Counted from the first letter of the stretch, positions 5,301 through 63,956 are shown. The stretch is 64,000 bases of DNA from Streptomyces sp. MA5143a (GCF_900290235.1 NZ_OLMK01000009.1:124001-188000), one strand, 5' to 3'. Notes: generated by a model from the letters alone, not told the origin. Numbers and translations are program-made.

Positions 5301-8300
5301 GCGTTCACCCACCTCGGGCTCACCTCGCTCACCGCTGTCGCCCTGCGCGACCGGCTGGCCGCGCGGACCGGCCTGCGATTGCCCGTGACGACGGCCTTCG
5401 ACCGTCCCACGACCTCCGTGCTGGCCGCGGCCCTGGACCGCGAGCTGTTCGGCCACAGGCCGGACGACGACACCGGGCCATACCCCCCGCGCGCGGACGA
5501 CGACGATCCCGTCGTCATCGTCGGTATGAGCTGCCGCTACCCGGGGGGCGTCGCATCCCCCGAGGACCTTTGGCGGCTCGTCGCCGAAGGCCGCGACGCC
5601 ATCGGCTCCTTCCCCACCGACCGCGGTTGGGACCTGGAGCGGCTGCTGTCCGGCGACGGCAGTGAGGCCGGCACCTCGGCCACCGGCAACGGCGGATTCC
5701 TCGACGCACCGGGCGACTTCGACGCCGCGTTCTTCGGTATCAGCCCGCGCGAGGCCCTCGCCATGGACCCGCAGCAACGACTGCTTCTGGAGGTCGGCTG
5801 GGAGGCGGTGGAACGTGCCGGCATCGACCCGACCGCCCTGCGGCAGACGGACACCGGCGTGTACGTCGGGCTGATGTTCCACGACTACGCCAAGAACCCC
5901 GGCCGCCTCCCCGAGGACCTGGAACGACTCCTCGGCACCGGCACCGCGGGCAGTGTCGCCTCCGGGCGCCTCGCCTACACGCTGGGCCTCAACGGCCCGG
6001 CTCTCACGGTCGACACCGCCTGTTCCTCTTCGCTCGTCGCCCTGCACCTGGCCTCGCAGGCCCTGCGCCGCGGCGAATGCTCGCTCGCCCTGGCCGGTGG
6101 CGTGGCGGTAATGGCGACGCCCAGCACCTTCGTGGAGTTCAGCCGCCAGCACGGCCTGGCACCCGACGGTCGGTGCAAAGCCTTCGGCGCGGACGCCGAC
6201 GGAACCGGCTGGTCCGAGGGCGTCGGCGTCGTCGTCCTGGAACGGCTCTCCGACGCACGTCGCAACGGCCGTCCCGTCCTCGCTGTGATCCGCGGCAGCG
6301 CGGTGAACCAGGACGGCGCCAGCAACGGCCTCACCGCACCGAGCGGACCGGCACAGCAGCAGGTCATCCGCCGGGCCCTGGCCGACGCGGGCCTGAATCC
6401 CGCCGACGTGGACGCCGTCGAGGCCCACGGCACGGGGACCGTCCTCGGTGACCCGATCGAGGCCAACGCGCTTCTCGCGACCTACGGTCGGGGCCGGGAC
6501 CCGGAACGCCCGTTGCTCGTCGGCTCGTTCAAGTCCAACATCGGCCACGCCCAGTCCGCGGCCGGCGTCGGCGCCGTGATCAAGATGGTGCAGGCGATCC
6601 GGCACGGCGAACTGCCCCGCACCCTGCATGCCGACCGGCCGACCTCGGCCGTGGACTGGGCCTCGGGCGCGGTTCGCCTGCTCCAGAAGCACACCGCCTG
6701 GCCCGAGACCGCGGATCGCCGACGTGCCGCTGTGTCCTCCTTCGGGGTCAGCGGCACGAACGCCCACCTCATCCTGGAACAGGCCCCGGACCCCCTGCCC
6801 GTCGCCTCTCCGGCCGGACGGCCCGACACCGTGCCGGTGGTCCTGTCGGCCCGCACCGGGCCGGCGCTGCGCCGCCAGGCCGAACTCCTGCTGGACGTGG
6901 TCCGCGCCGATCCCGGCCTCCGCGTCCCCGCCCTCGCGGCCGCCCTGGCCACCACGCGTACCGCTTTTCCGCGTCGCACCGCGTTCGTCGTGGAAGGGGT
7001 GGCGGAACTGGAGCGCCGACTGGCGGCCGTCGCCGCCGGCGAGGATGCGGGATTCGCGCCGGACGGGGCCCGTGGCGAGGCGTCGCTGGCCATCGGATTC
7101 ACCGGCCAGGGCAGCCAGCGCCCAGGAATGGGGCAGGAGTTGTACGCCGCCTACCCCGTCTTCGCCGCAGCGCTCGACGCGGCCTGTGCCGCCCTCGACC
7201 CGTACCTGGACCGTCCGTTGCGCGACGTCATGTGGGTTGCCGGGGGCACGTCCGAGGCCGGGCTCCTCGACCGTACCGACTTCACGCAGGCCGCGTTGTT
7301 CGCCCTGGAGAGCGCGCTCTTCCGGCTCGTCGAGTCCTGGGGCATCGTTCCCGATCTCGTCATGGGACATTCGATCGGGGCGCTGACGGCCGCACACGCG
7401 GCCGGGGTGTTGTCCCTCCAGGACGCGGCCTCGCTCGTCGCGTCCCGCGGCCGGCTGATGGCCGCGCTGCCGCCCGGTGGCGCCATGGCGGCGATCGAGG
7501 CGACCGAGGACGAGGTCCGTACCGCGCTCGAGACCCGTGCCGGGTCAACCGCCGGATCCGTGGCCGTCGCCGCGCTCAACGGTCCGCGCTCGGTCGTGGT
7601 GTCCGGTGACGAGGAGGCGGTACGAGCGGTCGGCGAGGCGTTCCGGGCGCGGAAGCGCCGGGTGACCGGGCTCCGGGTCAGCCACGCCTTTCACTCGCCG
7701 CTCATGGATCCCATGCTGGAGGAGTTCAGGGCGGCGGCGCGGAAGGTGACCTACCGCCCGCCCGCCGTCCCGATGATCTCCGACCTGACCGGGCGGCCTG
7801 CCGATACGGCCCAACTCTGCTCGCCCGACTACTGGGTGAGCCACGTCCGAGAGGCCGTTCGCTTCGCGGACGCCGTGACCGCCCTCCCGGCCCAGGGCGT
7901 CACCTCCTTCCTCGAACTCGGACCCGACCGTCAGCTCACCACGATGGCGAGCGAGTGCGTGCCCGGCGGCGAACTGCACCTGTGCGGAGGACTGCGCCGC
8001 GGACGGTCCGAGGTGCGCTCACTGCTCGACGCGGTGGCCCGGGCCCATGTGCACGGCGTTCCCGTCGACTGGCGGAAGTTCTTCGCCGGACGTCCCGCGC
8101 GCCCGCTCGACCTGCCCGTCTACCCCTTCGAGCACCGGCGATACTGGCTCGCGTCCGTGCCGGAGGGAACCACTGCGGCGCAGGCGCAGGCTGAGGCTTC
8201 GGGCCCTCCGTCCCCGCCGGACGACCCCTCGGTCGTGGACCGGCTGCGCGCCGAACTGTCGCGTCTCTCCGACGAGCTGAGGGAAAGGAAGCTGACCGAT

Positions 8301-48102: not shown

Positions 48103-51100
48103 TTATATCCGATCTTGCGTGACCCGAGCAGGAGTGCTGGCCGACCCTCGCGACAGCTGGGCTTCCGTAGGCGGCACGAAGTCTTCAGCAACGAGGGCCG
48201 CGAGGTCGAAGTATGCCTCCCGCGCCTTCGGCCGCACCATGTCGAGGTCCACCTCGGCACCGGCAGCCAGGTGCTCGTCGAACGGAACCACAATGACACC
48301 CCGGCACCGCGTCTCGAAGTGCGCCACCATGTCCTCCTCCTTGACCATCTTGCCGGTCTCGCGTACCCCGGAGATGACGGTGATGGACCGCGCGACCAGG
48401 GCCGCGTACCCGTGCGCCGACAGCCAGTCCAACGTCGTACTCGCGCTGCTTGCCCCGTCGACCGACGGCGTGGAAATGATGATGAGCTGGTCGGCGAGGT
48501 CGAGCACACCGCGCATCGCGCTGTACAGCAGACCCGTGCCCGAGTCGGTCAGGATGATCGGGTACTGCTTGCCGAGTACGTCCATCACGCGCCGGTAATC
48601 CTCGTCGTTGAACGTCGTGGTGGCGGCCGGGTCAATGTCATTGGCGATGACCTCCAGACCGGAGGGGGCCTGTGAGGTGAACCGCCGGACGTCCATGTAC
48701 GAATTGACGTGCGGGATCACCTGGACCAAATCACGGATCGTGGTATCGGTCTCGCGCCGTACACGGCGACCGAGCGTACCGCCGTCCGGGTTGGCATCAA
48801 TCGCGAGGATCTTGTCCTGCCGCTCACTGGCATATGTGGCACCTAGGGCAAGCGTGGTTGTTGTTTTACCGACGCCGTCCTTGAGACTGATCACGGCGAT
48901 CCGGTAGTTGGAAAGCACCGGCGTACGAATCAACTCCAGCTTCCGCCGACGATCGGCGGTGCTTGTAGCGCTGACGCGCAGTTCTACGCCTTCCTTCTTT
49001 AGGACTCGATCGAGGGCGCGCAGGATGTTCTTCCATTCCGTCGCCGGAATCCCGTCCGCCTCGAAGGACCGACGTATGTCATCGCCGGTGACGAACCCAC
49101 TGGCCTTTCCATGCTGGATAAGCCTGGTCAAGTGAACGAAGTTGGCCAGTTCGGAAGGGGGCGTGACGGGCGCAACGGGCAGAGCGCCGGAGGAAGACGG
49201 ATCGGAAATTGCGTATCCGTAGATTCGGAGCTGCTCCAAAGCGCGTCGTACAGTGCTGCGGGAGACGGAGAACCGTTCGGCAAGGGTCTGCTGCGCGGGA
49301 AGGCGTTCCCCCACTGGGAATGCTCCGCTCTGAATGTCTTCAATGAGAGCTTCCACCACGACTTCGTACGCCTTTTTTCGAGGAGGGCGCGCCTCAATTC
49401 GGAGCTCTATACCCGACTCCTCCAAGAATTGGTTGAGAGTACGCAAGACGTTCTTCCAGTCAGTCACCGGAATGCGGTCAGCCTCGAACGCTCGACGCAC
49501 GCTATCACCTATGATGTAGCCTTCGGCCCTGCCTTCTTCAATCAGTGCTGTCAGGTGGCCGAACTGTGTGAGATCGGCTGGAATGTGAAATTCAAGACTG
49601 TTAGGCGAACTTCCGAATATCCCTACATCCTGTGGAGGTGCAGGGTACCCGTCTTGTTGCAGGCGCGCGATGACGCGCCGTACGGCCGCTGAGAATTGCT
49701 TGGCAAGTGCCCTTTGTGTAAGGAGTTGGTTGCTCTCGGGGGCAACGCCGGACGTGATGCCGGAGTGCGGCCCCTTTGCTATCTCTGGAGAGGAAGGTCC
49801 TGTGGGTTCTGTCGCGCCGTCAGTGGCGCCGAGATACGCGAAAGGCCGGCGATAAGCTGGGAACTCTTTACTGGAGGCCAAGTCGTGCCGGACGGCGGAA
49901 ATGCCGTCCGGTGCGTACGGGTGAGCGTCGAGATACCGACTGAGGGCGCGTCGCGCCTGCCACATGTCGTAGGCGGTCGCGTGAGCACGGAGCCGGTCGC
50001 GCGCACCGGAGTGAAGGGCCAAGACCGGGTCGTGTCCGGCCGTGTGGGTGATGGTCAGCAGACCGCTGGTAAGGAATTCGGCGATATCGGCCAGGGTGCC
50101 CTCAGGCGCCGCCTGCTCGCGGAGCGCGTGGAGGAGCGGCACGGTGAGTTTCGGCAGGTTGGAACAGAGGACAGCAAGACGGATTGCGGAAGCTGAAGCG
50201 GTGTGGAGGAAGGCGTCTGCGATGACCGCAGGGTCTGTTCGGGTGAGGGAAGTCCTAGCGCGCGAGGGGGTGGGAGGGGAGAGCCTTCCTGTTGCCGGAA
50301 TGAGTATGGCGTCGCATCCGTGCGGATCCGGCCGCATCATGGTGCGCGACCATGCGCCAATTGACCGAGGGGTACAGGAGATGACCGGCAGGGGCAGCCA
50401 CTGGGGTTGCTGAGCCTGGCGTCCGGGAGGCTGCTGCAGCCGCATGGGGAGGCGGTATCGCAGAACAGCGTTCCGCTCGCCGGCCTGTGAGGCGGTCACG
50501 CGCACAGCGGGCAGATTGAGCGCGGAACGCCGCCACAGGCGGCGGGGCAGGGGGTTGATGAGCGCGACAGGGACATGCTTTCCCCACGTGTGCAGGAGCT
50601 GCCACACTCGTGGTTGCTGCCAGCCTGCCGAGGCACAGTCGGAGAAGACGAGAATGAGACGTCTTCCGCGGGATCCGCTGCCGTGGTGCGGGACTCGATC
50701 GGCTACGACGACGCCACCGAGCTGATCATGAACGTGCGGGTGCTCGTCCTCCCACGTCAGTTGCCAGTCGTGCACAGCCCGGAACACACCGAGGCCCCGC
50801 ATCAACTTCGTCAGCGCCTGAGCTGTATCGCCCCACACCCGCATCGAGACGGAGGTGTCTACCACAACGACGGCCTCGAACCATGCTTCCGGTGCCGCGC
50901 TGAACACCGGAACCAGGGGTCCCCCTCTGGAGTGGTGGTCGACTGTCGCGTCTATGTCCAGGCGGGTACGGCTCCCTCGGAGCCAAGGACGCCGGAACGG
51001 CTGGAGCGACCGGCCGATGGCCAGGGCCTCCGAGAGGGGCTCGGAGCGGCCGATGGAGAGCGGTTCGCCGCGTACGCGTGCGTCGCCCTCAGGATGGAGT

Positions 51101-51417
51101 GCCGACACCCCGGTGATCCCGATCGGCTTGTCGGCCTGGTGAGCCGTCAGTGGAGTGGGATCGGTGGGTGTCCCCGCCTCGGTCGTGCTATCGCCAATTG
51201 AGTCGGCAGACGTCGGCCTAACGACGGGTACGGACAGATCGGGGCGACCGCCGCTTTCGCCGGAACGAGCAGCAGCCAGCCAGATCGCGTCGGCAAGTGT
51301 TCGAGCGTCAGTGCCTGCCGGAGAAGTCGCGGCCAGCACGTCCAGCAGCCTGCGCAGATCCTTACGCACGGGAGAGCTCGCGGGTGAGCAACTCATGCAG
51401 ACTTTCTCGTTGCTCAC
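48103..51417 (-). CDS. vWA - sigma-1.1-like x2 - GntR HTH - ParA/MinD ATPase fusion (SAV_2336-like)
   Basis: A 1104-residue protein with an unusual domain string. (1) N-terminal SAV_2336-type region and vWA domain with MIDAS DTSVS near residue 186. (2) Two repeats resembling sigma-70 region 1.1: [18 protein letters not shown] near 615 and [18 protein letters not shown] near 757, each followed by WKN(V/I)LR and GIELR/GVELR. (3) Between the repeats, a GntR winged helix, [20 protein letters not shown], about 677-740. (4) From about 837 a ParA/MinD-type ATPase, [16 protein letters not shown] (deviant Walker A with D for the usual G), AIDANPDGG, and LTDSGTG. It is last in a leftward operon; its start overlaps the MoxR stop. 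GTG 51417 is used, with ATG 51396 or GTG 51369 possible. A sensor and regulatory hub is inferred. Confidence 0.85.
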
Positions 51418-52330
51418 CCTGCAGTTCCTGGGTGCCGCTCAGCAAGGCCACGGCGTTCAACAGCTGGTCGATAGCGAGATGGTTCCCGCCGGCCACGCGA
51501 TCGGCGAACTCCTGAATCAGCTGCTCGCTCTCACCGGTGATCTCTCCATCGAAGTGTGCTTGGACGATGTTTCGGAGTAGTGGCGCCGTCAGCTGGGGCA
51601 TGGTGTAGCGAATGCAGCGGCGCAGGAATGGCGGTGGAAAGTCGCGTTCACCGTTGCTGGTGAGCACGATGAACGGGAACTGAGTGCACTGCACCTTCCC
51701 GCTCTCGATTGTGTGGGTGTTCCTGTTGCTCCAGAGACGGATCTCCGCCCGGTGACGCCTGTAGCGTACGAGTTCGGGAATTTCATACTCGCCGCGTTCC
51801 AGTACCTCCAGCAGGTCACTGGGGAGGTCGAGGTCGCTCTTGTCGATCTCGTCGATGAGGAGTGCACGGGGTCGCTCCGCGGGCAGGAGTGCGGTGCCCA
51901 GAGGACCGAGTTGCAGGAACGGAGCGATGTCGTCACGGCTGCGGGCGCTGCCCTTGCGCCCCGCGCGCAGGTGTGAGCGCCGACTGACGGTGTTCTGGAG
52001 GTTCTGGGCGTGAATCCGTCCCAGAGCGTCGTAGCGGTACAGGGCCTCACTGAGGTTGCTTCGAGATGTGATGTGCCAGCGCAACACGTCACCCAGATCC
52101 AGTTCGTGAGCGACCTGTTCGATCACCGTGGACTTCCCAGACCCTGCAGGACCGGTCACCAGGAGCGGGCGGCGCAGGTGGAGCGCGGCGTTGACCGCGT
52201 CGATAAGGCCGGCTGGCGGTTGGTACTGGCCATGCTGTGAGTTGCGCGGGAAGGTCCGCCATGGGGGCGGGGCAGCCAAAGGCACCTCTCGCTGCTTGCC
52301 GTCACCCTGGTAGTAGGGCCTCCACGTCAT
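51362..52330 (-). CDS. MoxR-type AAA+ ATPase of VMAP operon
   Basis: A 322-residue AAA+ ATPase. Walker [10 protein letters not shown] lies near residues 59-67, Walker [13 protein letters not shown] near 155, a sensor-1-like [20 protein letters not shown] near 225 with the arginine-finger pair, and a short lid domain. These match MoxR ATPases, which partner vWA proteins; here the vWA gene follows directly with overlap. The ATG overlaps the caspase-gene stop by four bases (ATGA). In vWA-MoxR-VMAP conflict systems the ATPase is thought to gate or remodel the effector. Confidence 0.92.
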
Positions 52331-54387
52331 GCTTCCTCCTCAGGCGTGGTGACCACGCGGTATTCAAAGGGCCGGCAGAACTCCAGCCACCCCTCGTCGT
52401 GCCAGACGGTACGGATGTCACCGAGACAGGCCACGCCGTGCTGGTGTGCTCCCCACCGATGGCGATACGCAGCTGCCAAGCCGTCCGGTAGTTCGTGCCA
52501 GCGCTCCTGTACCAGGCCGCGTAACTGGCCCTGATCGGGGCGGGTATCGCTGCGGGGCCACAAGACGATGGGCGCGAAGGGCAGTAGCAACTCCAGGACC
52601 TCTTCGAGGTCATCGGGAGAGTGATCGACACCGATGACCGCGTCGTACTGTCCGGCGGAGAGTCGGTACTCAAGTGCCGACCGGTCGAGCAAAGCATCCG
52701 AGTCAATCCACTCCACTGGAGCGGCAGCGCAGGAGGACTTCTTCTTCAGCGCTTTCCGGGCAGCATCGTTGATCTCCGCGTTGTCCTCGGCTTCGTCGAG
52801 GCGGCCGCTCCAGCGCGGTATGACGGAATACTTGGCCCCGAGTAGATACCGGCCGACTTTTTCCTCCTCGGGGTACCAGCGGGCAAGGAGGTGAGCCGGG
52901 GCTGCAATGTCGACGTGCTCCAGGAGTTCCGGATATGGAAGCTCCCTGCGGGCCCAGATCATGGCGGCTCCGATGGCCTTTGCCACACCATGCGCCCCTC
53001 CGGGTTCGCAAGGGAAGCGCTGGTGCAACGGAAGGTCTGCGCTGCCATGCAGAAGCCATGCGTCCACCTCTTCGGGCCATTCGGTCCAGGCACCGACCAG
53101 ACTGACGACTAGGCGCAACGCCCGGCGCTGCCGGTCTTCGGCGAACTCGCCGAAGGCGTCGTTGACTTCGGTTACAATATGCAAGCGCCGAGCCCATTCC
53201 TGGAGACGGGGATCGACGTGCGAGATCCCTGACTCGTGGAGGAGCGCAGCCACGAACCGGGCCAGCCCCTTCCATGGTGCTCCGTCAAGAGGTTGAGCCC
53301 GTAACACGGCGTACTCAAGCAGGTCCCGCAACGGAACCGTGCCTTCCGCGCGTGAGGGGAAGCCCGCCAACCGGCCGGCAGATCGGAGTAGATCACTGGT
53401 CAGAGAGCCAGCGAGGACGTCCGCGAGAAACTCCTTTGTCCGGAAGACCTCCAGCAGGGCCGTCACCACGTCGTCGACCCACGCCCGTGCAGCCGAGTCC
53501 AGCTCATCGTCGACCCGGCTGCAGGCGATGAATTTCTCCAGCTCCAGAAGTGTGGAACGGGTGAGACGCCCGGGTGAGCGTCGGGGGCCCCGCCACATCT
53601 CCACGCTCTGGCCTAGGTCCTGGAGTCCCAGTGGTCCGACGACATCTCCATGGGCGTTCGCGATGTTCGACGGATTCCGAGCCAGCCACAGACCCTCGAG
53701 AGGGAACGGATCCTGGTCATACTCGGCCCGCCCGATGACCTGTCCGCTTACCTGATCGCGCAGCGTTTCAGCCAGCGTTCTGTCGATGTACAGCGCCGGC
53801 CCGGCGCCGGGAACACCGTCTTTCAGGGTCCTGGCCAGGGAAAGGCTGAGGCTCATATCACGAGCTGGCTGATCGGCCGCGGCGGCCGTGAGAATAGCCA
53901 GCCGAGACCTGCCCGCACGGACGCCACCTGCCAGCCTTCCGGCGTCCGGAACTCCGCCAGCCGCATGGCAGGTGTCGACAATGGCGATCACACCGTCAAT
54001 CCCCGGCTCGTCTGCGGCCTCGGTTATCAGGCGTCCGACATCCACGGCGGACCGGAGGCTCTGCGTCGTTGAGTTACGGACCATGAAATAGAGATCGGTG
54101 CGCTGTGGCGGAGTGAAGCCGTGCCCCAACAGGGCCAGCACGAGAACAGCGCCGTCGGCCTTCGCCTGCCGGACCACAGTGTCCACCGCCTTGCCGATGT
54201 CCTGTGGCGTCAGGTCGTCCCCGATCAACAAGGAGGGATACTCCCCGGTTCGGGCCTGGCAGCCTCCCAGCATCGGGTCCGTCAAGGCGTCGTGTAATTC
54301 CCGGGCGGCCTTCTCCAGTTGGCTGAGCGGCCCCATTGCCGTGCACTGCGCCGCGATCACCTGCACGTGTCGTACAGCCTTGGCCAT
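52327..54387 (-). CDS. caspase-like VMAP effector protein
   Basis: A 686-residue protein from ATG 54387, which shares one base with the upstream stop. The N-terminal about 250 residues form a caspase/metacaspase-like (C14) domain: catalytic His89 in LALLGHGF and Cys140 in IVDTCHAAG, the DxCHxG-type signature, with LTAAAADQPA after it. The remaining 430 residues lack motifs known to me and occupy the place of the VMAP C-terminal domain in vWA-MoxR-associated proteins (LPLHQRFPCEPGG and VDHSPDDLEEVLELLLPFAPIVLWPR are notable). The gene immediately precedes the MoxR ATPase, as expected for a VMAP ternary system. A protease released on sensing invasion is the inferred role. Confidence 0.85.
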   Translation of the reverse strand: MAKAVRHVQVIAAQCTAMGPLSQLEKAARELHDALTDPMLGGCQARTGEYPSLLIGDDLTPQDIGKAVDTVVRQAKADGAVLVLALLGHGFTPPQRTDLYFMVRNSTTQSLRSAVDVGRLITEAADEPGIDGVIAIVDTCHAAGGVPDAGRLAGGVRAGRSRLAILTAAAADQPARDMSLSLSLARTLKDGVPGAGPALYIDRTLAETLRDQVSGQVIGRAEYDQDPFPLEGLWLARNPSNIANAHGDVVGPLGLQDLGQSVEMWRGPRRSPGRLTRSTLLELEKFIACSRVDDELDSAARAWVDDVVTALLEVFRTKEFLADVLAGSLTSDLLRSAGRLAGFPSRAEGTVPLRDLLEYAVLRAQPLDGAPWKGLARFVAALLHESGISHVDPRLQEWARRLHIVTEVNDAFGEFAEDRQRRALRLVVSLVGAWTEWPEEVDAWLLHGSADLPLHQRFPCEPGGAHGVAKAIGAAMIWARRELPYPELLEHVDIAAPAHLLARWYPEEEKVGRYLLGAKYSVIPRWSGRLDEAEDNAEINDAARKALKKKSSCAAAPVEWIDSDALLDRSALEYRLSAGQYDAVIGVDHSPDDLEEVLELLLPFAPIVLWPRSDTRPDQGQLRGLVQERWHELPDGLAAAYRHRWGAHQHGVACLGDIRTVWHDEGWLEFCRPFEYRVVTTPEEEA

Positions 54388-55355
54388 CACTGCTTCAGCG
54401 CCTCGACTATCGGCCCGGCCACGGCTGGCTGCTTGAGGTATTTGGTCGCCGTGTGAACCCAGATACCGTCGGAGTCCACCCGGCGTGTCAATGGCACGAC
54501 TCCCGAGGAGTTCGGCAACATCCAGTCCTTTATGCGCGGGCGACACACCACGATGTCGTCCCGATCCCAGAAGTTCAGCCATCGCTCCACCGATTCCGGT
54601 GTGCGCGCCGGCCGGGGCTGGGCCCGCTGCAGGACCACTCCGGCTGTCGCCAGCGGAGAGCCCAGTGTGACGAACAATCGGTTGGGCTGGGCCATGTGGT
54701 GCAGCGCTTCATAAGCGACTACAGACCCGAGTGAATGCGCCACGACAACCAGAGGAAGCCCCGGCTCCACGGAGCTCAGCACTCGTTCCCGAATCAGGAC
54801 GTCCAGTGGCTGACCCTGACGGCCTTGCACCTTTCGGTCCAGGTACCGCCCGACTTGGGCCAGGCTTCCCAGCAGAGGCCATCCACTGGCCCATTGGCCA
54901 GCCAGTCGCAGTCCGGGGAGCTGGAGAAGAGTGGTCAGTATCCGTGCAACCATACGTAGGGGCTCTCCTACTCCCTGAAGCTCCCCCGTGCTGTTGCGGG
55001 ACTGGGACCGAGCGTCCTCGATCACGCGGAGCGCTCGACGATCGCCTTGCGCCTGCGCTTGTAAGAGCAGTTCATCCGTCAGTTCGCAAACCAGGGTGTC
55101 CAAGAAGGCGAGCTGCTCGCCGTCGAGATGCTCTGAAGCTCCCTGCTCACCGTCCGTGGCGAACAGATCACTGTAGTTTGCGAAATGTGTCTTCGCCAGC
55201 CACCCTTGCGTCAGCCCTGACACGGCATCGGCATGTCCGGCATGGCGAGCGCCTTCAGCGAGTGCTTCCAGCCAGGCGCGTTTCTCCGCCACGGCGTCTC
55301 GTACGCCACCGATACCGTGCACGAACACCAACTGTGCTCTGCCAGGCGTGTCCAT
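54387..55355 (-). CDS. alpha/beta hydrolase leading the VMAP operon
   Basis: A 322-residue alpha/beta hydrolase. FVHGIGG near the N-terminus supplies the oxyanion loop; the nucleophile elbow is VVVAHSLGSVVAYEAL with Ser208; NFWDRDDIVV probably carries the acidic residue and GIWVHTATKYL the late His. The insertion between strand and elbow is long and helical. The start ATG 55355 follows the GC-rich GGGGGGCGCGGG. The stop shares a base with the caspase-gene start, so the two are tightly coupled. It could be a lipase/esterase effector or a signalling enzyme; the substrate is not deducible. Confidence 0.85.
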   Translation of the reverse strand: MDTPGRAQLVFVHGIGGVRDAVAEKRAWLEALAEGARHAGHADAVSGLTQGWLAKTHFANYSDLFATDGEQGASEHLDGEQLAFLDTLVCELTDELLLQAQAQGDRRALRVIEDARSQSRNSTGELQGVGEPLRMVARILTTLLQLPGLRLAGQWASGWPLLGSLAQVGRYLDRKVQGRQGQPLDVLIRERVLSSVEPGLPLVVVAHSLGSVVAYEALHHMAQPNRLFVTLGSPLATAGVVLQRAQPRPARTPESVERWLNFWDRDDIVVCRPRIKDWMLPNSSGVVPLTRRVDSDGIWVHTATKYLKQPAVAGPIVEALKQ

Positions 55356-57747: not shown

Positions 57748-57981
57748 GTAAGGCGGGCCACACGGCTGCCCGTCAACGTCGGTCACGAGTGAGCGAGAAG
57801 TCAACTCACTGTCAGACCGTCCGGGCCAGGTTGAGCGCCGGTTCGGACGAAGCCATCCGGCAGTGATCGAGTCATGCCGTTGTGCCGGGGGCCAATGGGA
57901 CGGTTGCGCAGTGCCGTCCCGGACGAGGGTCTGACTCATGACATCTATGACCGAAGCGTCCAGTCACAGGCTTGTCGACTG
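57748..57981 (+). repeat. direct repeat R1 (IS110 left-end remnant plus flank)
   Basis: About 234 bp closely resemble 62469-62700, with roughly four of five bases the same by eye and a two-base length difference. The part from about 57839 matches the left end of the intact IS110; no transposase follows here, so this is a solo end or deletion remnant. Confidence 0.8.
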
Positions 57982-58020: not shown

Positions 58021-58191
58021 TCAACGACTCCGTACCCACCAGGTGAGCCAGGCTGTCAGCGTTGCGCCCAACGCGGTCGCCGCACCGCGGAGCACGAACC
58101 GGCCGAATAGCAGCCAGGCCCGGCGGATCATCCGACGCGCACGTCGGGAATTCCGAGGGGAGATCTTCGACTTCGTTGGACGCTTTCGCAT
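58021..58191 (-). CDS. 56-residue basic membrane protein
   Basis: ATG 58191 is preceded by AGGAAGG at six bases, an excellent ribosome site. The product starts MRKRPTKSKISPRNSRRARR, a strongly basic leader, followed by AWLLFGRFVLRGAATALGAT and LTAWLTWWVRSR, giving one or two membrane helices; the stop is TGA at 58021-58023. It is too short for standard gene calls. It is divergent from the HTH-Z1 gene across the palindrome cluster, so the two might share control. Function unknown; the form recalls small membrane toxins, but this is only a resemblance. Confidence 0.55.
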   Translation of the reverse strand: MRKRPTKSKISPRNSRRARRMIRRAWLLFGRFVLRGAATALGATLTAWLTWWVRSR

Positions 58192-58287: not shown

Positions 58288-58301
58288 GGCAACGCGTTGC
58301 C
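58288..58301. promoter_or_regulatory. palindrome GGCAACGCGTTGCC
   Basis: A perfect 14-base palindrome 84 bp before the HTH-Z1 start. Its half-sites GGCAAC/GTTGCC recur in the larger inverted repeat 22 bp downstream, so both are likely operators for one protein. Confidence 0.6.
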
Positions 58302-58323
58302 GGATCACAGCGCAACAGGCCAG

Positions 58324-58351
58324 GTCTGTTGCCAAAACCCTGGCAACAGAC
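58324..58351. promoter_or_regulatory. 11-bp inverted repeat operator
   Basis: GTCTGTTGCCA (58324-58334) and TGGCAACAGAC (58341-58351) form a perfect inverted repeat around AAACCC. It ends 33 bp before the GTG of the HTH-Z1 gene, where binding would block transcription. It shares GTTGCC/GGCAAC half-sites with the upstream palindrome. Confidence 0.65.
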
Positions 58352-58384: not shown

Positions 58385-61300
58385 GTGCCGTCAGAACACT
58401 GGGCAGGCGGAAACCTGCGCGAGTTGAGCAAGGAGCTGCCTGAACTCCATCAAGCCCTGGCCAAAGCCCTACGCGGTGCGTTCGAGGTCATGCAGATCAC
58501 CCTGAGGGAATACGCCAGGCGACATCACCTGAGCGTGTCGGTGGTGAGCCGATATCTGAGCGGGAACCGTCTTCCGTCCAAAGACTTCATCGAGAAGACC
58601 ATCGAGCTGGCCGGCACCCGTCTCACCGCGGAAGACGCCACCACTTTGCGGAACCTCCACAGCCAGCGGGCTGAGGAGAAGGCGGAGCACGGAGCAGGCA
58701 GCATCCGGACACTGACGGCGCGCATGCTCAATCAGAAAGTGCAGTACGAGACGGCGACCCGCCAGCACTTGGCCACGATGGGCGCCTTGGATCGGGCCCA
58801 AACAGAAAACCACAGGCTGAAGACTCAGCTGCGCCTTTCCACCGGACCGCTGGCCGACACCTCCGATGACCTCCTCAGCGAACTGGAGCGGTATGCCGCG
58901 CTACGCGCGGCAGGTGCACGCGATGCCGTCACCTCCATCTCACACGACACCCATCGCAGCTGGCGCACTGCGCTGAACCAATACGATCGCGCCCCGGCCT
59001 TGACTTGGACGGACACCGGACCGTGCACCCCCGAGCGCCGCGTGGCCAGCTATCGGCGTCTAGGGCTGGATCAGCTGCATCGCGACGCGCTCGACGAACT
59101 CGTACCGTTACAGGTCGGCGGCGACGCCGCTGTCGATGACGTTGCGCTCGAGGTGCATTCCCTGGCGCTGGGAGCCATGCACGCCAACGGCCCCCGTCCG
59201 CTCGCCCGCGCCCTCGAATACTGGTCCGAGGACCATCCGTCTGTATCGGGTGCCGGTGCTCTGGACGCGAGCCAGTTCACTTTCCGCAGCCACCTGGCGT
59301 CAGGCGAAACCGCTGCCCCGCTCCTGGCTCTGTGGCGACGAAGCCTCACCGAATGGGACCACGCGGAACGGCCTGCTTGGACATCCACCCCACCCCGTAC
59401 CGCCGAGCGCCGCATCGCGGTGTATGAGCGCCTCGGACTGGAGCCCGCGACCCGCAGGGTGCTCACGGAGCTGATCCCGATCTCCTTCGCTGAAGGACCG
59501 ATCATCATCAGTAGCGAGTTCACCCAGTGGTACACACCCACCCACCAGTCCGGCCGCCCCTGGTACTGGCCCGCCTACCAGAGCTACCTGGCACAAATCA
59601 AGGGATGGACCGCCGAGGCGGTGGCCACCGTGGGAGAGAGCGCTGCCCAAGTGGTCGCGCGTCTCGCGGACCCCACTGATGCTGCCGCCTACCAGTCCAA
59701 GGGTTTGGTCATCGGTTACGTCCAGTCCGGGAAGACCGCCAGCATTACTGGGGTCGTCGCCAAGGCTGTCGATGCCGGCTACCGATTGGTCATCATTCTC
59801 AGCGGCTCTCTCAACATCCTTCGCGCCCAGACACAACGGCGTATCGACAAGGAGTTGGTCGGTCGCGAGAACATTCTGCGCGGAGCCCCCGAAGAGGACT
59901 GCGAGTACGCCTTGGACCCGGAGTGGAGGGCGGGAGAGTTCTTGACTCACGGCGGGCTTCCATCCCTCCACGGATCGTTCGACGTTCTCCGACTCACGAC
60001 CCTGAGCAGCGACTACCAGTCCCTGCAACAGGGGATCACCGCGCTCGAGTTCGAGAAGCGTGACGCCACGCTGCCGCTGTACCACCCGGCCAACCTGCAT
60101 CGCACGGCCGCCCGGCTCATGGTGGTCAAGAAGAACAAGGCCGTGCTCGGCTCGGTTATCAGAGACTTGCGCAGAGTCGGTGCCCAGTTGCAGGAGATTC
60201 CGGCACTGATCGTGGACGACGAGTCCGACTACGGATCGGTTAATACGCTGCACCCCGGGCATCAACGTGAAGGCCGTGAGCGCAGCGCCATCAACGCACT
60301 CCTCTCCGAACTGCTTGGCCTGCTTCCCCGAGCCCAGTACGTTGCGTATACGGCTACGCCGTTCGCCAATGTCCTCATTGATCCGCACGATGCGGAGGAC
60401 GTCTTCCCTAAGGACTTCGTGCTCTCGTTGCCCCGCCCGGCTGGGTACATGGGGGCGCGCGACTTCCACGACGTGGACTCTGCCATTCCTCCTGAGGAGC
60501 GAACGGTCGCCAACTCCCAGGAGATGGCCCATGTACGCGCCATCCACGAAGCCGAACCGGGCGACGACTCCTCTCTGCAACAGGCCCTCGATGCCTTTGT
60601 CCTGTCGGGCGCCATCAAGCTGTATCGCGAAGCCCTCGACCCGAGAAGTTTCGCTTACCGTCACCACACCATGCTGGTACACGAGTCCGTGCGCATCGCC
60701 GACCACCGCGAGCTCATGGATCGTCTCCTTAAGCTCTGGTACGTCCCCGGCCCACTCGAGGCCGAGGCTCTTCATCGGCTGAGGGCGCTCTACGACCTGG
60801 ACTTTGCCCCCGTATCCGCCCACCGGGCCGAAGACCTCGCACGCCCTGTCTCGTTCGACGAGCTGATCCCGTATATCGATGCCGCGCGTACCCGCATCGC
60901 CGGCGGCTCAGAGAAGCCTGTGATCACCGTCAACGGGGACAGGGATATCGAGCGCGCCAGCGTGGACTTCGACCAGCGCCCCGTATGGAAGATCCTAGTC
61001 GGGGGCGCCAAGCTCGCTCGAGGCTTCACCGTCGAGGGCCTCACCATCAGCTACTACCGCCGTGCCGCCTCGCAGGCGGACACCCTGATGCAGATGGGCC
61101 GCTGGTTCGGCTTCCGCGAAGGCTATGCCGACCTGGTCCGGCTCTACATCAGTCGCGGTGAAGCTGCTGGGAACAAAGAGATCGATCTCTACAAGGCGTT
61201 CGCAACGATGTGCCGCGATGAGGAGGAGTTCCGGTCTCAACTCGCCGACTACGCACACCTGGTCGACGGGAAGCCGATGATCACTCCGGCGCAACTCCCG

Positions 61301-62071
61301 CCATTGGTGGCCCAGTACCTGCCCTGGCTCAAGCCGACGAGTCCCACCAAGATGTACAACGCCGAACTCGTGGAGGTCCGGTCACCGGGGAGATGGATCG
61401 AACCGTCGGGCTACCCCGTGGACATCGGCGCGAAGCGCCGAAACACGGAGCGGTGGCGCGCGATCCTTAGCACCTTCCAGAGCCCCCTGGTCCCCGTCTC
61501 CGTGCCGGCTGACGGCAGCCGGCAGGAGACCTCCTTCTCCGCGTACACGACTGTCATCGGACACACGCAGTTCCTTGAGGTGCTCAGCAGGCTGGAGTGG
61601 CTGGCCCCTGGGAATTTTGCACCGCACCTCGCCTATCTGCAGACCGCAAGCACGACGGGGGCAAGCATCGAGGATTGGCTCATCCTCGCCCCCCAGCTAG
61701 CTCCGCCGCAGCGCCGGGCTGGATCTGTGCTGGAGTCTCCGGAGCTCTCACTCTTCGTCCGCAGTCGGCGTAGGGGGCCGCTCTTCGGCGCCATCAGCGG
61801 CCCCGCACATCGCCTGGCCGCCCGGGCTCTTCGTGCGAGCCTTCCGGATCGCAGGGGGATCGCATTGCTCTACCCGGTCCTGGAGGCGGGTGACGCCTAC
61901 CAACACACTGCGTATCTGCCCGGCACATCGGTCGACCCGTCCCAGGTCTCTCTTGCCTTCACCCTGCTCCCGCCTGGCGACTCGAAGGACGAAGCGGCTC
62001 CGCAACCTCCTCTGGTCCGATTCCGCGCCAGGGACTCCTCGTTGCCCGATCGCCCCATCATCGACAGGTAG
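58385..62071 (+). CDS. HTH-fused Z1-domain helicase-like ATPase
   Basis: A 1228-residue protein from GTG 58385. Residues about 36-78 form an XRE-like helix-turn-helix (ITLREYARRHHLSVSVVSRY, NRLPSKDFIE), followed by a coiled coil to about 150. Two repeats of the form TPERRVASYRRLGL and TAERRIAVYERLGL lie near 215 and 340. The Z1 helicase-like core has Walker A GYVQSGKTAS near 444, VDDESD at 610-615, YTATPFANV near 660, KLARGFTVEGL, and DTLMQMGRWFGFREGY near 900. Z1 ATPases usually sit in restriction-like or defence clusters with a methyltransferase and nuclease; none is visible here. A TTA codon is at 59108-59110. The inverted repeats upstream suggest autoregulation by the HTH. Confidence 0.85.
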   Translation: MPSEHWAGGNLRELSKELPELHQALAKALRGAFEVMQITLREYARRHHLSVSVVSRYLSGNRLPSKDFIEKTIELAGTRLTAEDATTLRNLHSQRAEEKAEHGAGSIRTLTARMLNQKVQYETATRQHLATMGALDRAQTENHRLKTQLRLSTGPLADTSDDLLSELERYAALRAAGARDAVTSISHDTHRSWRTALNQYDRAPALTWTDTGPCTPERRVASYRRLGLDQLHRDALDELVPLQVGGDAAVDDVALEVHSLALGAMHANGPRPLARALEYWSEDHPSVSGAGALDASQFTFRSHLASGETAAPLLALWRRSLTEWDHAERPAWTSTPPRTAERRIAVYERLGLEPATRRVLTELIPISFAEGPIIISSEFTQWYTPTHQSGRPWYWPAYQSYLAQIKGWTAEAVATVGESAAQVVARLADPTDAAAYQSKGLVIGYVQSGKTASITGVVAKAVDAGYRLVIILSGSLNILRAQTQRRIDKELVGRENILRGAPEEDCEYALDPEWRAGEFLTHGGLPSLHGSFDVLRLTTLSSDYQSLQQGITALEFEKRDATLPLYHPANLHRTAARLMVVKKNKAVLGSVIRDLRRVGAQLQEIPALIVDDESDYGSVNTLHPGHQREGRERSAINALLSELLGLLPRAQYVAYTATPFANVLIDPHDAEDVFPKDFVLSLPRPAGYMGARDFHDVDSAIPPEERTVANSQEMAHVRAIHEAEPGDDSSLQQALDAFVLSGAIKLYREALDPRSFAYRHHTMLVHESVRIADHRELMDRLLKLWYVPGPLEAEALHRLRALYDLDFAPVSAHRAEDLARPVSFDELIPYIDAARTRIAGGSEKPVITVNGDRDIERASVDFDQRPVWKILVGGAKLARGFTVEGLTISYYRRAASQADTLMQMGRWFGFREGYADLVRLYISRGEAAGNKEIDLYKAFATMCRDEEEFRSQLADYAHLVDGKPMITPAQLPPLVAQYLPWLKPTSPTKMYNAELVEVRSPGRWIEPSGYPVDIGAKRRNTERWRAILSTFQSPLVPVSVPADGSRQETSFSAYTTVIGHTQFLEVLSRLEWLAPGNFAPHLAYLQTASTTGASIEDWLILAPQLAPPQRRAGSVLESPELSLFVRSRRRGPLFGAISGPAHRLAARALRASLPDRRGIALLYPVLEAGDAYQHTAYLPGTSVDPSQVSLAFTLLPPGDSKDEAAPQPPLVRFRARDSSLPDRPIIDR

Positions 62072-62400: not shown

Positions 62401-62468
62401 CTTGTGGACAGCCGTGCACCAGGAAGAGGACTCGAAGCCGTTCCTGCGATGGTCGATGAAGGACGACC

Positions 62469-62700
62469 GTAAGGCGGGCCACACGGCTGCCTGTCATTGC
62501 CGGTCACGAGTGGGCGGGGAGTCAACTTATTGTCAGCCTGCGCCGGCCAGGTTGGGCACTGGTTCGGGCGAAGCCATCCGGCTGTGGTCGGGACGCGCTG
62601 TTGCGTCGGGGCAATGGGAGGGTTGCGCGATGCCGTCCCGGACGGGGGTCTGACTCATGAGATCTATGACCGAAGTGTCCAGGCACGGGCTTGTCGACTG
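62469..62700 (+). repeat. direct repeat R2 (IS110 left end plus flank)
   Basis: The second copy of the repeat at 57748-57981. R1 and R2 flank the HTH-Z1 gene and the small membrane gene. A third copy, matching only from the presumed left end of the element, starts at 63964. Confidence 0.8.
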
Positions 62701-62849: not shown

Positions 62850-63956
62850 ATGACGACCAGAGAGCGCAGCACCTCCTCCAGCACGGATCCACCCGTTCTG
62901 GGCGAGGTCGTCCTGGGTGTGGACACGCACGGCGAGCTTCATGTTGCGGCCGTGGTCTCCCCGCTGGGGAAGGTCCTGGGTACCGAGTCCTTTCCGGCGA
63001 CGGCGGCCGGGTATCGCCGGCTGCTTGTCTGGGCCCGCAAGCGGGGGACGGTGCGCCGGGCCGGTGTGGAGGGCACGGGTACCTTCGGAGCGGGCCTGTC
63101 GCGCTACCTGCTGGCTCAGGACGTCCAGGTGTACGAGGTGAACCGGCCCGACCGCGCAGCCCGTCGGCTGCTCGGGAAGTCGGACCCGCTGGATGCGCAG
63201 GCTGCTGCGCGGGCCGTGCTCAGCGGTCGCGCCCGGGCCCGCGCCAAGACTGGCGACGGTCCGGTGCAGAGCGCCCGGATGTTCAAACTCGCCAAGGACT
63301 CCGCGGTCAAGGCCCGTACCCAGGCGATCAACCAGCTCAAAGCCGTCCTCGTCATCGCCGATCCGGCCCTGCGGGAGCAGCTGTCCAGTCTGGGCAACCG
63401 CGAGCTGTTCCGCACCTGCGCGCGCCTCAGCCCGCTCGACGGCGACGACAGCGAGGGCGATGAGGACGCCGTGGCCCAGGCCACCCGCATCACCCTGAGC
63501 CTGCTGGCCCAGCGCATCGAACAGCTCACCGCACAGATCGATGAGCTGAACCGGCGGCTGACCCGGCTCGTCGAACGACGCGCCCCGCAGCTGCTCGTGC
63601 CGGTGGGCATCGGCCCGGACAGCGCCGTCACTCTCCTGATCACCATGGGAGGCAACCCCGAGCGGCTGAACACCGAGGGGTCCTTCGCCGCTCTGTGCGG
63701 AGTCAGTCCCATCGAGTACTCCTCGGGCCGCCGGACCTCGCGTCGCCTCAACCACGGCGGCGACCGGCAGGCGAACGCCGCCCTGCACCGCATCGTGTTC
63801 ACCCGGCTGCGCCACGACCCGCGCACCCAGGCGTACTACGAACGCCGCACCCAGGAGGGCAAGACCCGCCGTGAGATCATCCGATGCCTCAAGCGGTATG
63901 CCGCCCGCGAGGTCTTCAACCTGGTCAGGACGGTACCCACCAAAGCCCCGTTATAG
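62850..63956 (+). CDS. IS110-family transposase (DEDD recombinase), intact
   Basis: A 368-residue full-length transposase. The RuvC-like DEDD domain has Asp25 (LGVDTHGE), Glu74 (GVEGTGTFG), and Asp111/Asp114 in KSDPLDAQAAARAV. The C-terminal Transposase_20 domain has VPVGIGPDSAVTLLI, then CGVSPIEYSSGR with the likely catalytic Ser291 or Ser292. GCGGGAGGCG lies before the ATG. The DEDD acids and the serine are present, so it may be active. IS110 enzymes act with a bridge RNA and move without terminal inverted repeats. Confidence 0.93.
   Translation: MTTRERSTSSSTDPPVLGEVVLGVDTHGELHVAAVVSPLGKVLGTESFPATAAGYRRLLVWARKRGTVRRAGVEGTGTFGAGLSRYLLAQDVQVYEVNRPDRAARRLLGKSDPLDAQAAARAVLSGRARARAKTGDGPVQSARMFKLAKDSAVKARTQAINQLKAVLVIADPALREQLSSLGNRELFRTCARLSPLDGDDSEGDEDAVAQATRITLSLLAQRIEQLTAQIDELNRRLTRLVERRAPQLLVPVGIGPDSAVTLLITMGGNPERLNTEGSFAALCGVSPIEYSSGRRTSRRLNHGGDRQANAALHRIVFTRLRHDPRTQAYYERRTQEGKTRREIIRCLKRYAAREVFNLVRTVPTKAPL

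What the first reader, a model, noticed from the sequence alone, without database searches (positions are those of the whole stretch)
58385..62071. Orphan Z1 ATPase fused to a DNA-binding HTH
Z1-domain ATPases normally occur with methyltransferase, Vsr/PD-(D/E)xK or AIPR partners. Here none is adjacent on either side within the window, and the protein has gained an XRE-like HTH, a coiled coil and a two-copy xERRxAxYxRLGL motif. It may be a single-gene defence protein that senses or regulates through its own DNA-binding domain.
Basis: partly seen in the sequence, partly recalled or inferred. Interest (0 to 1): 0.72.

Follow-up and report, generated by a model that had tools for sequence, protein, structure and literature searches.

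The report
DNA-binding Z1 motor plus membrane peptide
A motor protein that normally helps bacterial enzymes cut foreign DNA has, in a few Streptomyces, lost its cutting partners and been joined to a gene-switch domain beside a tiny membrane-protein gene, which may make a new kind of phage alarm but has not been tested.

Summary
The protein is real and largely as described: an intact 1228-aa ORF with an XRE-type HTH, one long coiled-coil helix, a duplicated helical module and a complete SF2/Z1 ATPase. Its usual R-M partners are missing nearby, and the two tested (MutL-like, PD-(D/E)XK) are missing genome-wide. The HTH is rare: 29 of 29 sampled HTH-less Streptomyces relatives lie beside a MutL-like (GHKL) gene in R-M-type operons; none of four HTH-Z1 fusions does, where visible.

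It is not a single gene. A divergent 56-aa, very basic, membrane-type ORF (58191-58021, minus) is conserved in two other species, and the promoter between the two genes carries an array of GTTGC/GCAAC half-sites. The same operator and small divergent membrane ORFs recur beside many unrelated proteins sharing this HTH-coiled-coil start (response regulator, DnaA, TIR-TPR, solenoid). So a defence ATPase has been recruited into a Streptomyces regulator/small-membrane-peptide module. One other fusion has a Z1 with broken ATPase motifs, which fits a sensor or bait role.

Most likely mechanism: the HTH represses both genes, and engagement of the Z1 part by invading DNA or an anti-defence protein releases a membrane-acting peptide. 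Architecture and operators are shown; repression, toxicity and trigger are inferred.

The parts
58385..62071 (+). HTH-coiled-coil-duplicated module-SF2/Z1 ATPase fusion, 1228 aa
   Evidence: ORF; Pfam Z1; 58% identical full-length homologue in Streptomyces sp. ISL-66 and an N-terminal part in S. pyxinicus LP11
58442..58621 (+). XRE/Cro-type HTH (aa 20-79)
   Evidence: AlphaFold pLDDT about 96, helical HTH; Foldseek ClgR, ImmR, HigA (E not significant); alignment with the HTH-coiled-coil family
58628..58843 (+). single long coiled-coil helix (aa 82-153)
   Evidence: model
58943..59104 (+). helical module copy 1 (aa 187-240), only in the own/ISL-66/LP11 fusions
59303..59476 (+). helical module copy 2 (aa 307-364), shared with HTH-less Z1 proteins
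59714..59740 (+). Walker A GYVQSGKTA (aa 444-452), intact
60203..60229 (+). Walker B / motif II ALIVDDESD (aa 607-615), intact
60572..61312 (+). Pfam Z1 domain (aa 730-976), with motif VI QMGRWFGFR at 61091-61117
58288..58348 (.). operator array: GGCAACgcGTTGCC (58288-58301), GCAAC (58312-58316), perfect inverted repeat TGTTGCCaaaaccctGGCAACA (58327-58348)
58021..58191 (-). divergent small ORF, 56 aa, net charge +16, one moderately hydrophobic C-terminal segment
   Evidence: 20 of 34 C-terminal residues identical to the ISL-66 62-aa ORF; BLOSUM 112 in frame against 69 or less in other frames
57748..57981 (+). solitary IS110 left-end remnant (84% to the IS110 left end near 62468-62700) bounding the module upstream
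62850..63956 (+). IS110 transposase bounding the module downstream; a second IS110 copy follows beyond the window

Best explanation
This is a two-gene, autoregulated module on mobile DNA. An XRE-HTH/coiled-coil head is fused to a catalytically intact SF2-Z1 ATPase taken from MTase/MutL-like/PD-(D/E)XK defence operons. The dimeric fusion protein binds inverted TGTTGC/GCAACA repeats in the divergent promoter and represses itself and a small, strongly basic, membrane-type peptide gene (58191-58021). When the Z1 motor engages invading DNA, or a phage anti-restriction factor, the repressor leaves the operator; the peptide is made and acts on the cell membrane (growth arrest or abortive infection). 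Shown: architecture, intact ATPase motifs, loss of R-M partners, conserved divergent small ORF, operator array shared by the HTH-coiled-coil family. Inferred: repression, dimeric binding, membrane toxicity, the trigger, defence.
For: ATPase motifs intact and matching those invariant in HTH-less relatives; SF2 translocase fold, best Z 15.7 to FANCM, also RIG-I/MDA5 and Mfd. Three species share the fusion, the small divergent ORF and the promoter. The small ORF is conserved in its reading frame. Half-sites: 5, 6 and 6 against about 1.0, 0.6 and 0.5 in shuffles. The inverted pair is found at 3 places in 9.8 Mb, 0 in the control. Family-wide: inverted GTTGC-N7..12-GCAAC in 23 of 51 HTH-coiled-coil promoters against 1 of 319 other promoters, p about 2e-21. 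A divergent small membrane-type ORF by one mechanical rule: 30 of 51 against 17 of 212 controls. The Z1 domain dimerises N.CglI (PMC4267653), which suits inverted-repeat operators. The ISL-66 and LP11 copies lie near integrase genes.
Against: Nothing shows that the small ORF is translated, membrane-inserted or toxic; its hydrophobicity is moderate (best 19-residue mean 1.28), and the three Z1-linked copies fall under the cut-off used for the family-wide count. No phage link: PADLOC and PHROGs do not know the small ORF. An activator rather than a repressor HTH would leave the same sequence marks. The long form is rare (2 of 393 Streptomyces genomes). Between ISL-66 and LP11 the HTH, coiled coil and small ORF show no excess of third-position changes, unlike the motor.
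Confidence: 0.42

Rival explanations
1. Orphan remnant: a Z1 subunit left over from an R-M/MZA-like operon broken up by IS110 elements, now without function.
For: Flanked by an IS110 remnant and two IS110 copies; all normal partners missing nearby.
Against: 1228-aa open frame with all ATPase motifs intact; the same fusion, small ORF and operators in two other species in different surroundings; the motor is under purifying selection between ISL-66 and LP11 (5, 6 and 29 changes at codon positions 1, 2 and 3 over 157 codons).
Confidence: 0.1
2. Single-protein defence: the Z1 motor with its HTH acts alone on invading DNA, and the HTH only targets or autoregulates; the small ORF is accessory or irrelevant.
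For: Z1 ATPases are defence subunits; motor intact; no nuclease or methyltransferase partner nearby.
Against: No nuclease domain found in the protein; the divergent small ORF is kept in all three relatives and small membrane ORFs recur beside the HTH-coiled-coil family; in CglI the Z1 subunit needs a separate nuclease (PMC4267653).
Confidence: 0.15
3. Non-defence regulator: the HTH-coiled-coil family are Streptomyces developmental or envelope-stress regulators, each controlling a small membrane protein; the Z1 part senses DNA or nucleotide state and the peptide adjusts the membrane, without phage involvement.
For: Other members carry response-regulator, histidine-kinase, SpoIIE/GAF and DnaA domains; the module is multi-copy in Streptomyces genomes.
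Against: Other members carry TIR plus NB-ARC/TPR parts; the Z1 part comes from R-M-like operons; patchy distribution, near integrases or IS elements.
Confidence: 0.25
4. Works in trans with R-M partners encoded elsewhere in the genome.
For: Some paraMORC3 GHKL genes are reported as standalone and possibly acting with unlinked systems (PMC2292703).
Against: No relative of the usual GHKL or PD-(D/E)XK partner in the own, ISL-66 or G492 genomes, while the positive control G021 rang; no second Z1 in the own genome.
Confidence: 0.05

Closest known systems
MzaABCDE / Dcm-Vsr-MORC-like R-M operons (MzaC Z1 subunit)
   Same: Z1/SF2 ATPase core, about 50-58% identical to operonic Streptomyces relatives; PADLOC MzaC and NCBIfam MzaC are the best models.
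   Different: No MutL-like, PD-(D/E)XK, Vsr, MTase or AIPR gene nearby; extra HTH, coiled coil and duplicated module; far below the NCBIfam MzaC equivalog cut-off (233 against 1500 bits).
N.CglI / N.NgoAVII (Z1 ATPase subunit of CglI-type R-M, PMC4267653)
   Same: DEAD/SF2 ATPase followed by a Z1 domain; Z1 dimerises N.CglI.
   Different: No R-protein nuclease or MTase here; DNA-binding HTH added.
Z1C helicases as effectors in multicellular-bacteria conflict systems (PMC7159879)
   Same: Z1 SF2 helicase used outside plain R-M; HTH domains also occur among those effectors; a VMAP system lies about 4 kb away.
   Different: The neighbouring VMAP genes are on the other strand and separated by a kinase gene; I did not find this HTH-coiled-coil head or the divergent membrane peptide in the passages read.
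Streptomyces HTH-coiled-coil-X proteins (unnamed; X = response regulator, solenoid, DnaA, TIR-TPR, SpoIIE, histidine kinase)
   Same: Same N-terminal HTH and coiled coil, same GTTGC/GCAAC operators, divergent small membrane ORFs.
   Different: X is a Z1 ATPase here.
XRE repressor-controlled toxin modules
   Same: XRE-type repressor, inverted-repeat operators, linked small effector (comparison from general knowledge).
   Different: The repressor is fused to a large motor; no toxin activity is known.

Membership tests
Z1-domain ATPase (MzaC/N.CglI-like) | Pfam Z1 above cut-off plus SF2 motifs (Walker A, DExD-like, motif VI) | tested here: met
   Z1 164.6 bits against cut-off 25; motifs GKT, DDE, QMGRWFGFR intact; SF2 fold
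MzaABCDE / GHKL-Z1 R-M system | MutL-like GHKL partner beside Z1 | tested here: not met
   absent from the neighbourhood and from the whole genome with a working positive control; present beside 29 of 29 HTH-less relatives
MzaABCDE / GHKL-Z1 R-M system | PD-(D/E)XK (DUF4420/MzaD-like) nuclease | tested here: not met
   none in the own genome, control rings in G021
MzaABCDE / GHKL-Z1 R-M system | DNA methyltransferase / Vsr / AIPR adjacent | tested here: not met
   neighbouring genes scanned; a genome-wide search for these was not done
Streptomyces HTH-coiled-coil-X family | N-terminal HTH plus coiled coil homologous to the other members | tested here: met
Streptomyces HTH-coiled-coil-X family | GTTGC/GCAAC inverted operators upstream | tested here: met
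   5 half-sites, perfect 22-bp inverted repeat
Streptomyces HTH-coiled-coil-X family | divergent small membrane ORF | tested here: met
   56-aa ORF, related to the small ORFs beside solenoid-type members; translation untested
Toxin-antitoxin / abortive-infection module | toxicity of the small peptide and neutralisation or repression by the partner | not testable with these tools
   needs an expression assay

The most novel reading that the evidence does not exclude
The HTH-coiled-coil-X proteins of Streptomyces are an undescribed modular alarm family: one shared repressor head and operator, a set of divergent small membrane peptides as effectors, and interchangeable X domains copied from host machinery or defence systems (Z1 ATPase, DnaA, TIR-TPR, response regulators) that serve as sensors or baits for phage factors. 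The HTH-Z1 fusion with broken ATPase motifs (L131) would be a pure bait, like integrated decoys in plant immune receptors.
Probability: 0.25. Interest if true: 0.88.

Novelty: new variant of a known kind. Interest (0 to 1): 0.62.

Why it matters
It shows a restriction-type ATPase cut loose from its nuclease and rewired to a transcription switch with its own operator and a candidate membrane effector. The operator (TGTTGC/GCAACA repeats) and the divergent small membrane ORFs tie dozens of unrelated Streptomyces proteins into one testable family. If the sensor/effector reading holds, it is a new way of building defence: one repressor head with exchangeable sensors. Even if not, it gives a predicted binding site for a large set of Streptomyces proteins that no library used here names as a family.

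Tried and rejected
MTase/nuclease set beyond the IS110s: none. R-M partners in trans: no GHKL or DUF4420 relative; the first DUF4420 family search was uninformative because no control genome rang, so it was repeated with proteins and a positive control. HTH universal in Z1: rejected. One origin of all HTH-Z1 fusions: own and ISL-66 form one clade (100/100), but L131 is a long branch and one or two origins cannot be told apart. Membership in the nearby VMAP system: opposite strand, separated by a kinase gene. Solved-structure sequence search: nothing significant. IMG/VR was not scanned for the fusion. Literature: no description found of the HTH-coiled-coil/small-membrane-ORF pairing; the library lacks most subscription papers. 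Small-ORF searches at E up to 1 return many chance hits; only those beside HTH-coiled-coil genes or with the shared motif were used. The other two exact matches of the operator in the own genome lie inside a leucyl-tRNA-synthetase-like gene and at the start of a glycosyltransferase-like gene, so no regulon is claimed there.

Full report
WHAT IS THERE. The window is G000:C119:124001-188000 of a Streptomyces-type genome (9.8 Mb; the nearest relatives that carry names are Streptomyces). ORF 58385-62071 (+) codes for 1228 aa. Pfam finds Z1 at aa 730-976 (164.6 bits, cut-off 25) and only a sub-threshold HTH_31 at 38-78. AlphaFold on aa 1-400 gives a helical HTH (20-79, pLDDT about 96), one 72-residue coiled-coil helix (82-153) and two copies of a helical module at 187-240 and 307-364. 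The rest models as an SF2 motor, best Z 15.7 over 366 residues to FANCM, with RIG-I, MDA5 and Mfd close behind. Walker A, motif II and motif VI are intact.

ORPHAN STATUS. Upstream on the window lie a Ser/Thr kinase and, on the other strand, an alpha/beta-hydrolase-like ORF, a VMAP-M2 protein and an AAA (MoxR-like) ATPase. Downstream are two IS110 copies, then a fatty-acid desaturase, CorA, a GNAT-AAA protein, Band-7 and SpoIIE. The genome has no other Z1 and no relative of the usual MutL-like or PD-(D/E)XK partner; the same queries ring in their source genome G021. Among Streptomyces relatives, 29 of 29 sampled HTH-less Z1 genes have the GHKL gene within two genes upstream, many with a PD-(D/E)XK gene, and a cytosine MTase, Vsr or a SEC-C protein nearby. 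These operons are MZA-like (MzaB, MzaC and MzaD models) and fit the GHKL/Vsr/SF2 R-M operons of Iyer et al. 2008 (PMC2292703). The HTH-less proteins hold only one copy of the duplicated module.

HOW RARE IS THE FUSION. In 393 Streptomyces genomes the long form is found only in the own genome and G046. A scan of GTDB contigs gave Streptomyces sp. ISL-66 (the same 20,082-bp contig as G046) and S. pyxinicus LP11, where the gene is cut by the contig end. A fourth, shorter HTH-coiled-coil-Z1 fusion, L131 (G492), lacks the duplicated module and has lost catalytic residues: QSGKT to QSGVS, RGFT to HGGT, QMGRWFGFR to GMGRWAGFR. Own and ISL-66 form a supported clade; whether L131 is a separate fusion is unresolved.

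THE MISSED PARTNER. Directly upstream, on the opposite strand, lies a 56-aa ORF (58191-58021). ISL-66 and LP11 have a 62-aa counterpart in the same divergent place. Own and ISL-66 share 20 of 34 C-terminal residues (RRAW....R..LRGAA..LG.TL.AWL.WW...R). The BLOSUM score in frame is 112, against at most 69 in the other five frames. The peptide is very basic (+16, +15 and +13) with one moderately hydrophobic C-terminal segment. Relatives occur divergently beside other HTH-coiled-coil genes, mainly the solenoid type.

THE OPERATOR. The 193 bp between the two genes hold five GTTGC/GCAAC half-sites (six in ISL-66 and LP11) against 0.5-1 in shuffles, including a perfect TGTTGCC-N8-GGCAACA at 58327-58348. 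The pattern TGTTGC-N7..12-GCAACA occurs at three places in the whole genome and not at all in the reversed control. Across 51 promoters of HTH-coiled-coil genes, TGTTGC is seen 74 times against 6.9 expected. Inverted pairs occur in 23 of 51 against 1 of 319 control promoters, and in 0 of 75 upstream regions of the HTH-less operon genes. These loci were chosen for having the HTH, not for the motif. Some loci are close relatives, so the p-value is optimistic, but the contrast is very large.

THE WIDER FAMILY. The same HTH-coiled-coil head is fused to response-regulator, solenoid, DnaA (ATPase plus DNA-binding domain), TIR plus NB-ARC/AAA plus TPR, SpoIIE/GAF and histidine-kinase parts ('solenoid' is my reading of repetitive sequence, without a Pfam hit). 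By one mechanical rule, 30 of 51 have a divergent small ORF with a hydrophobic segment, against 17 of 212 control genes. These small ORFs fall into five sets, three of them with five or more members. The three Z1-linked small ORFs are not in that count because their hydrophobicity is under the cut-off. I found no description of this pairing in the paper library.

MECHANISM. Shown: anatomy, intact motor motifs, missing partners, conserved divergent ORF, operator array. Known from elsewhere: N.CglI uses its Z1 domain to dimerise and hydrolyses ATP on DNA together with its nuclease (PMC4267653); here no nuclease is present. Inferred: the dimeric fusion sits on the inverted operators and represses both genes; engagement of the motor releases it; the basic membrane-type peptide is the effector. 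The degenerate L131 protein, with the same promoter layout and a divergent small ORF, suggests that ATP turnover is not always needed, which favours a sensor or bait role for the Z1 part. I put about 0.8 on operator binding by the HTH, about 0.5 on the peptide being a membrane effector, and about 0.42 on the whole account.

EVOLUTION. Between ISL-66 and LP11 the motor shows strong third-position bias (5, 6, 29), while the HTH (11, 10, 10), coiled coil (6, 13, 12) and small ORF (7, 6, 6) do not. This would fit fast change of the switch and effector, but it rests on one pair. The LP11 and ISL-66 copies lie near integrase genes; the own copy lies between an IS110 left-end remnant (57748-57981) and two IS110s.

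VERDICT. It is a new variant: a defence ATPase recruited into a Streptomyces regulator/small-membrane-ORF module.

Noticed in passing
window 48103-54582 (minus): A VMAP-type conflict system: VMAP-M2 protein, AAA (MoxR-like) ATPase and a large ORF with GntR-HTH and ParA-like parts, next to an alpha/beta-hydrolase-like ORF.
   Followed up: partly
L131 4888-7926 (minus), small ORF 8077-8232: HTH-coiled-coil-Z1 fusion whose ATPase motifs are degenerate, with six GTTGC half-sites and a divergent small membrane-type ORF.
   Followed up: partly
L066, L067, L120, L136: HTH-coiled-coil proteins of the DnaA type (Pfam and NCBIfam DnaA on L120; the others cluster with it); L120 and L136 have divergent small membrane ORFs of a family separate from the Z1-linked one.
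   Followed up: partly
L122, L125, L126: HTH-coiled-coil fused to TIR plus AAA/NB-ARC plus TPR parts (L122, L126; L125 clusters with them); L126 scores as an FxSxx-COOH system TPR protein.
   Followed up: no
L156, L160, L162, L163: Relatives of the small basic membrane ORF in a conserved cluster with a ~300-aa protein and, in some, a further ~450-aa protein, without the HTH-coiled-coil gene.
   Followed up: no
window 57748-57981 and L002 4480-7607: Two tandem IS110 copies and a lone left-end remnant; the module lies between them.
   Followed up: partly
L036 and L092, codons 1-365 of the fusion: HTH, coiled coil and small ORF show no third-position bias between two species, while the motor does.
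   Followed up: partly
L005 7182-17386 (Arthrobacter plasmid p2MP): MTase, ATP-binding protein, PD-(D/E)XK and Z1 gene cluster, the closest plasmid-borne Z1 relative.
   Followed up: no
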